Shown here: one piece after another, positions 1 through 29,164 of the stretch
Layout: each line of letters begins with the position of its first letter
How positions within the stretch are numbered: the first letter of the stretch is position 1
The notes under the pieces: generated by a model
What the model saw: the letters and a program-made list of their open reading frames with translations, nothing else
The model's database searches: none
What the model was told of the DNA's origin: nothing
Virus record (IMG/VR): IMGVR_UViG_3300022707_002679
Location: 1 to 44,282 of that record
From: a virus
Length of the DNA: 44,282 bases
Strand: one strand, 5' to 3'
Translations under genes and position numbers: made by a program

Positions 1-89
1 CGTGAATTTTTGTTCGTTGTCTAAATATTTAGGCATACGCTCTCCAACCGGACTTGATTTTCATAGTATAGCAGAAAAACCTTGTTTTC

Positions 90-243
90 TAAAATAGCAA
101 TATAGATTTATAAAATAGCAACTAATTTGATGAAATAGCAATAGTGTTTATAAAATAGAAATATTATTTTCTCAAATGGCAATATATTTCTAAAATAGTA
201 ATTCTATTTCTAAAATAGAAATATTACTTTCTAAAAAAGAAAT
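90..243. repeat. Eight 12-bp direct repeats phased at about 20 bp
   Basis: Copies of TAAAATAGNAAT start at 90, 111, 131, 151, 172, 191, 211 and 232, so the step is 19-21 bp, about two helical turns. The best copies extend to an imperfect 17-bp palindrome, ATTTCTA-AAA-TAGAAAT. Identical helical phasing suggests cooperative binding of one regulator or initiator. Bases between copies are AT-rich and variable. Operators, iterons or a packaging site are all possible. Confidence 0.6.
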
Positions 244-285
244 AAAGTTAATATATTAATGTTTTGTATAGGTTTTTTATAGTAG

Positions 286-5050: not shown

Positions 5051-5194
5051 TTATCTGGTTACAAGATTAATCGCATCTTCTTTGGTATCGAAGCCATGGC
5101 CAAAATTTGTATGCTCCCATCCTGTCACAGGACTGTATGCGATCCATTTTGTTTTCGTACCAAAATATCTTTGCTTAGTTTTTAATTGAATCAT
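5051..5194 (-). CDS. Hypothetical small protein (47 aa)
   Basis: The ATG at 5194 overlaps the methyltransferase stop as ATGA, so translation is probably coupled. The product is small and basic-aromatic: a YFGTKTKWIAYSP strand, then GWEHTNFGHGFDTKEDAI ending in a helix, as in small dsDNA-phage beta-alpha proteins. Function unknown. It fills the gap before terS, and coupling on one side supports it as real. Confidence 0.6.
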   Translation of the reverse strand: MIQLKTKQRYFGTKTKWIAYSPVTGWEHTNFGHGFDTKEDAINLVTR

Positions 5195-6375
5195 CCTGTA
5201 GCCTTTCGTTTAATTGGTTTTTCATTTTCCAAAACAGCCTTCTTACCTGTGTAATTTTCCCAACGTTTTATAATAACTGAAACATAACATGGATCTAATT
5301 CCATCATATAACATATTCGTTTTGTTTTTTCACAGGCGATTAGGGTTGAGCCGGAGCCGCCGAAGAGGTCAATAAAAGACTTAGGGTGTGTTTTGGAATG
5401 CCTATCTGCGTACTCTATACACCATTCAAGTATTTCTATTGGTTTTTGTGTGGCGTGATGTTTTTCTTCTTTATTGGCCTTAGCTCTTGAATATTCTTTT
5501 ATGCGCATAGCATTATCAAATGATGTCCAAGCCATTTCTCCATCAGCTAGAGAGAACCCCCTTTGCCCTTTGTCCCATACTAACCATCCCATAGTAGGGG
5601 GCAAACTATCAGTAAAATAATTTCCTCCCCATATTATTTGATTGGGAGCCAAAGATTGTAGATATTCAAAGAATTCCTTACTTGGTCTTTCCTCGTCCCA
5701 TCCTCCTTTATGTTGCGTCCATCCGTGTTTCTCTTGCCCTAATGCCATAGAGCCACCATAACCAATCCCATAAGGCGGATCAGTAAAAACCATATCAGCC
5801 TTATTACCATCCATCAGTAACGCCACCGTACCGGCATCCGTGCTATCTCCGCACATCAACCTGTGATCACCAAGCAACCAAACATCGCCCAGCTTACTAA
5901 CAGGATCCTCCGGCACATCAGGCACCTCATCCTCATCGGTTAGTCCTTCTGTTTCTTCAAACAACAACGCCTCCAACTCATCATCATCAAACCCGGTAAG
6001 GGATAAATCAAAATCAACATCATCCAGAAACGAGAGTTCATTGGCCAGTATCTCCATATCGAAACCACTATTCATGGTCAGCTTGTTATGCGCGATGATG
6101 TATGCTTTACGTTGATATTCAGTCAGATGTCCCAGCTTGATAATGGGTGTGGTTTTGATACCAAGCTTTTGTAACGCAAGCAGCCTGCCATGGCCCTCAA
6201 TGATTGTGTAATCATCATCGACCGCAATCGGATCGCACATGCTAAATTCTTTTATACTGGCCGCTATCTGATCTATTTGTTCCTGGGGATGTTCTTTAGC
6301 GTTGTTGGAATATGGGATTAGTTTCTTTGTATCCACGTACTCAATGGATAATTCAGTCTTTTTGGATTTAGTCAT
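5191..6375 (-). CDS. ParB-like domain / DNA N4 or N6 methyltransferase fusion
   Basis: A two-domain DNA modification enzyme (394 aa). Residues about 10-110 form a ParB/sulfiredoxin-like N-terminal domain (LIPYSNNAKEHP, then TIIEGHGRLLALQKLG). The remainder is a SAM-dependent amino-methyltransferase: catalytic DPPYGIGYGG near residue 200, and FGGSGSTLIACE with the acidic MMELDP near the C-terminus. DPPY preceding the SAM-binding motif is the beta-class order. Such fusions are common next to terminase genes in alphaproteobacterial phages and prophages; they probably protect phage DNA from host nucleases or adjust packaging or transcription. The start overlaps the upstream gene by ATGA. Confidence 0.88.
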   Translation of the reverse strand: MTKSKKTELSIEYVDTKKLIPYSNNAKEHPQEQIDQIAASIKEFSMCDPIAVDDDYTIIEGHGRLLALQKLGIKTTPIIKLGHLTEYQRKAYIIAHNKLTMNSGFDMEILANELSFLDDVDFDLSLTGFDDDELEALLFEETEGLTDEDEVPDVPEDPVSKLGDVWLLGDHRLMCGDSTDAGTVALLMDGNKADMVFTDPPYGIGYGGSMALGQEKHGWTQHKGGWDEERPSKEFFEYLQSLAPNQIIWGGNYFTDSLPPTMGWLVWDKGQRGFSLADGEMAWTSFDNAMRIKEYSRAKANKEEKHHATQKPIEILEWCIEYADRHSKTHPKSFIDLFGGSGSTLIACEKTKRICYMMELDPCYVSVIIKRWENYTGKKAVLENEKPIKRKATG

Positions 6376-27283: not shown

Positions 27284-27505
27284 ATGAATACAAAAGCCCT
27301 TGGTGTTACACCACTACAACGTGAATATCTGAATTTTATTACCAGATATATAGGTAAACATGAATATTCACCAACGCTTCAGGAAATAGCAGATCATTTC
27401 GACTGTACCGTTGGGAATGTATCGCTGAAAATGAAGGAGTTGAAGTTTCGGAACTGCATTGATTATGCGCCCGGTAAGGCGAGATCGATTGTTGTGAAGG
27501 ATTAA
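27284..27505 (+). CDS. LexA-type winged-helix DNA-binding protein (73 aa)
   Basis: The sequence follows the LexA N-terminal domain: PLQREYLNFITRYI, SPTLQEIADHFDCTVGNVSLKMKEL as the helix-turn-helix, and ARSIVVKD as the wing end. It has no peptidase domain, so it is not a self-cleaving repressor. Immediately upstream of the first guide array (13 bp) and the Tas-like gene, it may regulate the RNA-guided locus, or simply be the preceding operon gene. Confidence 0.8.
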   Translation: MNTKALGVTPLQREYLNFITRYIGKHEYSPTLQEIADHFDCTVGNVSLKMKELKFRNCIDYAPGKARSIVVKD

Positions 27506-27518
27506 ATCCAGATGTGAT

Positions 27519-27618
27519 GATGGTAACAAACGAAAAGAGTGAGCCAAAACCTAAGACAGTAACACTGAACACAAGCGAGCCATATACGATAACAGTAACA
27601 GAGAATCCGAGCAACTAC
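27519..27618 (+). repeat. Short TIGR-like guide array (3 units of 36 bp)
   Basis: Motif A (GATGGTAACA 27519, GACAGTAACA 27555, AACAGTAACA 27591) alternates with motif B (GAGTGAGCCA 27537, AAGCGAGCCA 27573, degenerate GAGCAACTAC 27609). All are 10 bp and separated by 8-nt spacers, so the period is 36 nt. Spacers after A are aacgaaaa, ctgaacac, gagaatcc; after B aaacctaa, tatacgat. A diverged B (ATTAAATCCA, 27501-27510) may precede. It sits between the LexA-like gene and the Tas-like gene start at 27637, in the same orientation as the long array. Confidence 0.85.
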
Positions 27619-27636
27619 TAACCAAAGGAGAAGCCG

Positions 27637-28650
27637 ATGAGTACATTAGAACCAATACAGAAACTAACCAAAGATATCCTCAAGGGAGGTGCCGGCACGC
27701 TATCCAGTACCGGCGCACGCTTTCTGGTCGATGCTTATTATCAAATGCAGGAAAACCGTAAACGATCCGACAATCAAGTCCGGTCAATGATTGATAGTGG
27801 GGAGCCAGATGAGATATTACAATGGTTTGCCGATCAGAACGCTGGTCTTGAAAATCAGGTTAAACGCGCCCTTGATGCTTATTCAGATGCTAATCCAGTG
27901 GGACAATGGGCAAGATCACAGAAGGGCATAGGGCCTGTTATAACAGCCGGATTGCTTGCACATATCGATATTAAACAGGCACCAACTGTGGGGCATATAT
28001 GGAGCTTTGCCGGGCTTGATCCGACAGTTACATGGAAGGGGCGCACCAAGGTCGATGCGTTTGTCAAAAAACTTGATAAAAGCATGGATATTGATAAATT
28101 TCTGACCGAGATTAGCGGTTTTGTAAATCGTAAACCAGAGAATATAAAACGCATAGCTGAACGTTTGGCCAAAGAAAAGAAGCTCACCAAGGCACATATT
28201 GCGAGCGCGGCCAGTCAACCTCCGCATAATAGCGGTTTGAAAACATTGTGCTGGAAAGTGGGCCAGAGTTTTGTGAAAGTATCAGGTGATGAAAATGCTT
28301 TCTATGGCCAAGTATATAAACGGCGTAAAGAATATGAAGTCAAAAAGAACGAGGCCGGTGATTACGCTGATCAGGCAGAAAAGAAATTAGAGGATTTTAA
28401 TATAGGTAAAAATACCGATGCCTATAAATCATATTCCGTTGGCCGATTGCCACCTGCACATATACAGGCAAGAGTAGAACGCTACGCGGTTAAGATATTT
28501 TTATCTCATTTACATGAAGTGTGGTATTTCGATGAGTTTAAGAAATTACCACCTAATCCGTTTGCAATAGGGATTTTAGGACATGCCCATAAAATTGATC
28601 CACCGGGATTTGATATGATTGATGGATTAATGGAAGCGAGAGCAGCTTGA
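27637..28650 (+). CDS. tasA: Tas-like protein: Nop / IS110 C-terminal fold, nuclease-less (TasA type)
   Basis: This 337-aa protein is flanked on both sides by the guide arrays. GIGPVITAGLLAHIDI (residues 97-112) and SFAGLDP (near 124-130) match the helix-hairpin-helix element of the IS110/IS116 Transposase_20 domain, which is related to the Nop domain of box C/D snoRNPs. LKTLCWKVGQSFVKV and AFYGQVYKRRKEYE match the C-terminal end of that domain. No N-terminal DEDD/RuvC-type acidic set and no HNH motif is seen, so DNA binding without cleavage is expected. AAAGGAG precedes the ATG. Assignment follows the published Tas families; the final subfamily is inference. Confidence 0.82.
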   Translation: MSTLEPIQKLTKDILKGGAGTLSSTGARFLVDAYYQMQENRKRSDNQVRSMIDSGEPDEILQWFADQNAGLENQVKRALDAYSDANPVGQWARSQKGIGPVITAGLLAHIDIKQAPTVGHIWSFAGLDPTVTWKGRTKVDAFVKKLDKSMDIDKFLTEISGFVNRKPENIKRIAERLAKEKKLTKAHIASAASQPPHNSGLKTLCWKVGQSFVKVSGDENAFYGQVYKRRKEYEVKKNEAGDYADQAEKKLEDFNIGKNTDAYKSYSVGRLPPAHIQARVERYAVKIFLSHLHEVWYFDEFKKLPPNPFAIGILGHAHKIDPPGFDMIDGLMEARAA

Positions 28651-29164
28651 TTTTGAGCCAGATATCCCGAAAGTAACACGCCTGAAAAGCGAACCAAACA
28701 CGACAATAGTAACAAAATGGCTGAGTGAGCCACGCTCTGCGATAGTATCATGACACCGAAGCGAACCAGTTTATCCGATAGTAACAATACATCCGAGTGA
28801 GTCATTAATAGAGATAGTAACAAAGAACTAAAGCGAGTCAGACCATCTGATAGTAACACGCCCCATGAACGAACCATGGTCAGTGATAGTAACATCATTA
28901 TGGAGTGAGCCAATAAAATGGATAGTAACATCCGGATGAAGCGAACCATAGGGACTGATAGTAACAGTAAGAAAGAGTGAGCCATTTAGGTTAATAGTAA
29001 CATATGAGCGAAGCGATCCACGACTCCGGATAGTAACATGGTATAGGAGCGAGCCAAAGAAAGGGATAGTAACAATAAACTCAAGCGAGCCACATCTCTA
29101 AATAGTAACATGGGAATAAAGCGAGCCATAATGCACGATAGTAACATCAATTCCGAGCGATTAA
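28651..29164 (+). repeat. Long TIGR-like guide array (14 units of 36 bp)
   Basis: Fourteen A motifs (RATAGTAACA) start every 36 bp from 28669 to 29137, each followed 18 bp later by a B motif (RAGYGARCCA; 28687 to 29155). The 8-nt spacers all differ. Variants are GAAAGTAACA (first), GATAGTATCA (28741) and a decayed last B, GAGCGATTAA (29155). A leading B-like TTTTGAGCCA begins directly after the tas stop (28650). The array runs into the stop codon of the convergent o-spanin gene (29161-29163). B copies partly alternate AAGCGA/GAGTGA, giving a 72-bp super-period. Processing would give 36-nt RNAs, each with two spacers. Confidence 0.9.

What the first reader, a model, noticed from the sequence alone, without database searches (positions are those of the whole stretch)
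27519..29164. TIGR-Tas RNA-guided locus encoded by a phage
Seen directly: two arrays (27519-27618 and 28651-29164) of alternating 10-bp motifs A (RATAGTAACA) and B (RAGYGARCCA) separated by unique 8-nt spacers, with an exact 36-bp period over 3 and 14 units, flank a 337-aa protein. Known: TIGR-Tas systems, described from phages and parasitic bacteria, consist of such an array, processed to 36-nt tigRNAs with two spacers, and a Nop-domain protein that may lack a nuclease (TasA). The protein has the IS110/Nop-like GIGPVITA...GLDP region and no RuvC or HNH motif. Inference: this is a TasA-type system that binds rather than cuts DNA, perhaps repressing competing phages or plasmids or controlling phage genes.
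Basis: partly seen in the sequence, partly recalled or inferred. Interest (0 to 1): 0.97.

Follow-up and report, generated by a model that had tools for sequence, protein, structure and literature searches.

The report
Phage-borne TIGR-TasA RNA-guided locus
This virus of bacteria carries an RNA-guided DNA-binding system of the recently described TIGR-TasA kind, and comparing the guides of its relatives shows for one group of them what such systems aim at in nature: genes of rival, prophage-forming viruses in the same group of bacteria.

Summary
Two arrays of alternating 10-bp repeats and 8-nt spacers (exact 36-bp period; 3 + 14 units) flank a 337-aa protein. Its profile and predicted fold match solved TasR and TasH structures ahead of IS110, with no nuclease domain. 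It is a new member of dual-repeat TIGR-TasA (Faure et al. 2025, PMC12045711). 131 non-redundant TasA loci gave 1,954 units. No spacer pair of the window matches its own genome above chance. In relatives, spacer pairs recur with A and B swapped (39 pairs at >=14/16; 0 in three controls): the same double-stranded target read from the other strand. A scan for one recurrent predicted target found 11 related phage contigs with it in the predicted reading frame. Other units of that phage group match four further nearby sites (distinct units with <=1 mismatch: 6, against 0.65 expected). Prophages in two genomes of the bacterial order that also hosts a related TasA carry alleles that different spacer variants match exactly. 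So TasA arrays of this clade can target rival temperate phages, probably by blocking without cutting. The window's own targets were not found. The held paper library shows no report of natural TIGR targets.

The parts
27506..27612 (+). TIGR array 1: 3 units, between the stop codon of a LexA-type HTH ORF and tasA
   Evidence: truncated edge ATCCA, loops GATGGTAACA/GACAGTAACA/AACAGTAACA, edges GAGTGAGCCA/AAGCGAGCCA, last truncated edge GAGC
27637..28650 (+). tasA, 337-aa solo Nop-domain protein without nuclease
   Evidence: Pfam Transposase_20 aa 93-137 E=6e-5; PDB 9mty (TasR) phmmer 6e-7, profile 1e-23; AF2 pLDDT 87, Foldseek top hits TasH/TasR
28039..28227 (+). extra helical insertion of TasA (about aa 135-197), shared with L002 and the L004-like TasA, absent from most others
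   Evidence: alignment A1, helices 136-145, 152-163, 167-178, 185-193
28655..29159 (+). TIGR array 2: 14 units, starts 4 bases after the tasA stop codon
28769..28794 (+). unit GTTTATCC-GATAGTAACA-ATACATCC, the only unit recognisably shared with the close relative L002 (15/16); predicted target GTTTATCCGGATGTAT
28913..28938 (+). unit ATAAAATG-GATAGTAACA-TCCGGATG whose predicted target overlaps that of unit 28769 in opposite orientation (10/11)
   Evidence: may be chance
27284..27505 (+). 73-aa LexA-type HTH ORF directly upstream of array 1; L002 has a similar ORF in the same place
   Evidence: Pfam LexA_DNA_bind E=1e-8; L002 reading

Best explanation
A TIGR-TasA locus: the arrays are transcribed with tasA and cut into 36-nt guides, each with two 8-nt spacers (inferred from the published system). 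TasA binds a guide and recognises 16 bp of DNA, spacer A pairing with one strand and spacer B with the other, with no gap (geometry supported here for one relative group by matching natural targets). The guides are aimed at rival temperate phages or prophages in the same hosts, and TasA, having no nuclease, bends or occupies the DNA and blocks transcription or replication (inferred). Spacer pairs turn over fast and correspond to alleles of the target, which implies repeated acquisition of paired spacers (seen as a pattern only; mechanism unknown).
For: Anatomy; homology and fold; arrays found beside tas in the relatives inspected. Swapped pairs (A,B)/(B,A) >=14/16: 39 against 0, 0, 0 in controls; 10 distinct unit pairs after collapsing identical units, about five independent events. 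Recurrent predicted target TAYCACGARGGCTTCY: 11 of 32 IMG/VR hits are one homologous gene in the predicted frame YHEGF. Group units against the 11 target contigs, A.rc(B), gap 0, excluding YHEGF units: distinct units with 0 mismatches 2, <=1 mismatch 6; permuted mean 0 and 0.65, maximum 0 and 2; the other 11 order/gap layouts give 0-2 at <=1. The gene is 100% identical in G123 and 60% in G127, same order as a genome with a 71% TasA relative; the G127 allele TATCACGAGGGCTTCT is matched exactly by unit L116@6117/L125@6195, the G123 allele exactly by L132@6159.
Against: The window's own targets were not found: 17 units give no excess in its own genome, and two target scans gave hits with no convincing common gene. 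A third predicted target, for another group (GKTS), also gave only unrelated hits and none in 399 genomes. No expression, processing or binding was tested. No rho-independent terminator follows array 2. The TasR-type UG box is absent.
Confidence: 0.72

Rival explanations
1. The guides aim at host chromosomal genes (regulation or counter-defence) rather than at rival phages.
For: The window's targets are unknown; Faure et al. list these roles as possible (PMC12045711); the host genome of the window phage was not available.
Against: In the one relative group with identified targets these lie in phages and in prophage-type modules with a serine integrase. Two other predicted targets gave no clustered host hits in 300-399 genomes.
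Confidence: 0.15
2. The system regulates the phage's own genes.
For: Nuclease-free binders could act as repressors; a LexA-type HTH gene lies next to it.
Against: Summed best paired matches in the own genome 221 against 219.3 +/- 2.0 for permuted pairs; in TasA phage records of a relative group the recurrent target has only 2-mismatch hits, at control level.
Confidence: 0.03
3. TasA guides pair with RNA, as box C/D snoRNPs do, rather than with DNA.
For: Fold kinship of Nop proteins; the targets found for relatives are mostly in transcribed genes.
Against: Swapped pairs and matching targets fit A on one strand and B on the other at zero gap, a double-stranded DNA geometry; TasR does not cut RNA.
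Confidence: 0.05
4. The locus is an IS110-type transposase with chance repeats, or a decaying relic.
For: Pfam and PHROGs name the protein a transposase.
Against: No DEDD domain; TasR/TasH are the best structural matches; the same layout is kept in L002 at 77% DNA but 88% protein identity; arrays accompany tas across phages.
Confidence: 0.02

Closest known systems
TIGR-TasA, dual-repeat class (Faure et al. 2025, Science, PMC12045711)
   Same: Solo Nop-domain protein; dual alternating repeats; 36-nt unit; truncated edge repeats at both array ends; phage-borne; arrays upstream and downstream of tas.
   Different: 8-nt instead of the usual 9-nt spacers; repeats RAGYGARCCA/RATAGTAACA without the TasR UG box; about 60-aa helical insertion; no terminator found after array 2.
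TIGR-TasH of Salicola phage CGphi29 (SpTIGR); solved TasH structures 21kl, 9w04
   Same: 8 + 8-nt spacers (SpTIGR); the closest solved fold by Foldseek is TasH.
   Different: No HNH nuclease domain here.
IS110/IS621 bridge-RNA recombinases
   Same: Nop-like (Transposase_20) region; RNA-guided relatives.
   Different: No DEDD catalytic domain, no bridge RNA element; arrays of many guides.
Type IV and type V-M CRISPR (named in the paper's discussion)
   Same: Works like: a guide array on a mobile element that interferes with other elements without cutting DNA (inferred here).
   Different: Unrelated protein, split guides, no Cas1/Cas2; not a member.

Membership tests
TIGR-Tas | Array of two alternating 8-12-nt repeats separated by short (about 9-nt, some exceptions) spacers | tested here: met
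   10-bp repeats, 8-nt spacers, 17 units; relatives share the layout
TIGR-Tas | Adjacent Nop-domain Tas protein | tested here: met
   TasR/TasH are best by profile and by fold
[quoted passage not shown]
   ATCCA...GAGC and GAGCCA...GAGCG
TIGR-Tas | Arrays typically followed by a rho-independent terminator | tested here: not met
   None on the + strand after 29159; the paper describes this as typical, not as defining
TIGR-Tas | 36-nt processed tigRNAs bound by Tas | not testable with these tools
   Unit length is 36; RNA data needed
TIGR-Tas | Tandem-spacer DNA targeting: A on one strand, B on the other | tested here: inconclusive
   Met by sequence for a relative group; no target known for the window
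TIGR-Tas | Box C (CCA) and box D (UG) motifs in both repeats, or covarying variants | tested here: inconclusive
   Edge ends CCA, loop ends ACA; both start RA, not UG; the paper says the motifs diverge but covary
TasA (solo Nop) | No HNH or RuvC domain | tested here: met
   Only Transposase_20 in Pfam; all-helical model
TasA-TasParB operon variant | ParB-like gene operonic with tasA | tested here: not met
   The ParB_N-methylase fusion found lies at 5191-6375, far away on the other strand
IS110/IS1111 transposase | N-terminal DEDD RuvC-like catalytic domain | tested here: not met

The most novel reading that the evidence does not exclude
Nuclease-free TIGR-TasA is a weapon between phages with a CRISPR-like memory: paired 8-nt spacers are repeatedly captured from early genes of rival temperate phages, in either orientation, by an unknown adaptation process without Cas1/Cas2, and tracked allele by allele.
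Probability: 0.5. Interest if true: 0.95.

Novelty: new member of a known kind. Interest (0 to 1): 0.78.

Why it matters
What natural TIGR arrays target, what nuclease-free TasA does and how spacers arise were all left open by the discovery paper. The family comparison gives a first concrete answer for one group: several sites in and beside an orphan gene and its phrog_2480 neighbour in temperate phages of the same bacterial order. It gives sequences for a direct binding and interference test, a no-gap 16-bp target rule, and evidence that spacer pairs are re-acquired from the target.

Tried and rejected
Own-genome targets and targets in the flanks of relatives: no excess. Recurrent target inside TasA phage records: only 2-mismatch hits, at control level. 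Peptide-level match of window units to its own proteome or to the target phages: no excess. Window-specific target scans: GTTTRTCCGGATGTAT, 12 unrelated hits; AAATRCATCCGGAYAAA (a J-domain-like HPDK idea), 33 hits, whose one large cluster is a match shared by closely related elements in which the predicted frame is not the long open frame, so the idea was dropped. GKTS target of L007/L008: 23 hits without a common gene, 0 of 399 genomes. TTCGASTCACTTTCAA: one hit in a host transporter gene, chance level. Phages and plasmids collections: no TasA relative of the window. Promoter scan: no excess over shuffles. Array as protein-coding repeat: rejected because L002 array 2 has stops in every frame.

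Full report
1. Observation. The two arrays are as described apart from a few bases at the ends. Array 1 (27506-27612) holds three units and array 2 (28655-29159) fourteen, all with a 36-bp period. Array 1 starts directly after the stop codon of a 73-aa LexA-type HTH ORF, and array 2 starts four bases after the stop codon of the 337-aa gene. Because both arrays open with a 5'-truncated and close with a 3'-truncated copy of RAGYGARCCA, that repeat is the edge and RATAGTAACA the loop. The guide pairs are therefore the spacers on either side of each loop. Exact copies of the two motifs occur nowhere else in the 44 kb.

2. Protein. Pfam finds only a partial Transposase_20 match. The sequence matches the solved TasR (9mty) at 6e-7 and TasH at 1e-4; with a 19-member profile these become 1e-23 and 6e-16, and IS621 7e-5. 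The AlphaFold2 model (mean pLDDT 87) has TasH and TasR chains as its ten best PDB matches, before IS621. No nuclease domain was found. This is TasA. A helical insertion at about residues 135-197 is shared with L002 and L004-like proteins but absent from most others.

3. Relatives. IMG/VR holds hundreds of TasA relatives (324 and 353 candidates, the best 80 kept each time). Five genome records also carry one, including an Acidobacteriaceae isolate, a Halomonas isolate and Candidatus Propionivibrio. Dual-repeat arrays accompany the tas genes inspected. Edge repeats are much alike across the clade while loop repeats differ by group. The closest relative, L002 (88% protein, 77% DNA identity; dN 0.086, dS saturated), has the same gene order but about 18 and 29 units. 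It shares only one recognisable unit with the window. Spacers therefore turn over much faster than the protein.

4. No self-targeting. For each of the 17 window units the best match of A followed by the reverse complement of B, gaps 0-2, was found in the window. The total, 221, does not differ from that of permuted pairs (219.3 +/- 2.0). The units of the first set of relatives show no excess in 0.78 Mb (both strands) of relatives' loci.

5. Swapped pairs. Among 1,954 units from 131 non-redundant loci, 39 unit pairs match at 14 or more of 16 positions when A and B are exchanged; three control transformations give none. Two further transformations (rcA,B and A,rcB) give hits that are homologous direct pairs with one near-palindromic spacer, and are not evidence. 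After identical units are collapsed there are ten pairs and about five independent events, plus one pair (L153/L026) that could be chance. Exchanging A and B leaves the double-stranded target unchanged, so these are the same targets read from the other strand. In four of the five events the differences lie mainly at third codon positions of one common frame, and most are synonymous, on the assumption that A and rc(B) abut. The fifth (TTCGASTC) does not fit. A tandem duplication with edge-to-loop conversion could also swap a pair, but would not explain allele-specific differences.

6. A target found. The most recurrent predicted target, TAYCACGARGGCTTCY, was scanned as TAYCACGAGGGCTTCY in IMG/VR. 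Of 32 hits, 11 lie in one homologous gene of about 161 codons, all in the predicted frame (YHEGF), with the predicted Leu CTG/TTG change. Eleven related contigs could share one chance match; one search shows such a chance cluster. The additional evidence is therefore what counts. Other units of the same TasA group match further sites near or in the same gene: excluding YHEGF units, distinct units with at most one mismatch number 6 against a permuted mean of 0.65 and maximum of 2 (two exact against none), only in the order A.rc(B) with no gap. The sites are upstream of the gene (TAAGAACC.TTCAAGAA), in it (WIACE codons), in the following phrog_2480 gene (KYTAW codons), and one about 1.2 kb away (CCCATGAA.CTCGTTAG in L215/L218). 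The L123 array has two neighbouring units against this phage.

7. Alleles and host. In 399 genomes of the order of Ca. Propionivibrio (which carries a 71% relative of the L125 TasA), the target protein occurs twice: 100% identical in G123 and 60% in G127. In G127 it lies in a module with a serine integrase on a 2.05-Mb contig. G123 carries TACCACGAGGGCTTCC, matched exactly by L132@6159; G127 carries TATCACGAGGGCTTCT, matched exactly by L116@6117 and L125@6195. Spacer variants thus correspond to alleles. The target gene was not found in the TasA phage records searched. The TasA proteins of L125 and L132 have no nuclease domain either.

8. Limits. Of three distinct predicted targets that were scanned in IMG/VR, one produced a target gene. 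The GKTS target gave nothing, nor did the window's own shared unit and its extension. The window's targets, host and sample remain unknown, and transfer of the inter-phage role to the window rests on family membership. Function (binding, repression, interference) is inferred.

9. Known and new. The locus is a new member of TIGR-TasA. The discovery paper states that genuine targets are difficult to identify and that TasA function and array growth are open. Three library searches found no later report of natural targets; most subscription papers and preprints are not held, so priority cannot be claimed.

Noticed in passing
window 85-244: About seven AT-rich ~20-bp tandem repeats (TTTNTAAAATAGNAATAT type) at the left end, before the first ORF; iteron-like.
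   Followed up: no
units of L047/L164, L158/L132, L124/L059, L121/L059: Four pairs of units have overlapping predicted targets in opposite orientation with an offset of exactly +2 bp (13/14 matches); offsets of 1-3 bp otherwise and in controls give 0-2. Possibly a trace of how spacer pairs are captured.
   Followed up: partly
L007, L008, L020, L026, L027, L029 arrays: Within-array duplicated units, some with one or two diverged spacer bases, and half-units with the same A but different B in L019/L021: arrays also grow by duplication and recombine at repeats.
   Followed up: partly
window 28769 and 28913: Two units of the window array have overlapping predicted targets (joint reverse-strand reading AAA ATR CAT CCG GAY AAA); may be chance.
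   Followed up: yes
window 5191-6375 (-): ParB_N domain fused to an N6/N4 DNA methylase, not near tasA.
   Followed up: no
PHROGs phrog_4285: The family that matches this TasA is named transposase, integration and excision; probably a misannotation.
   Followed up: no
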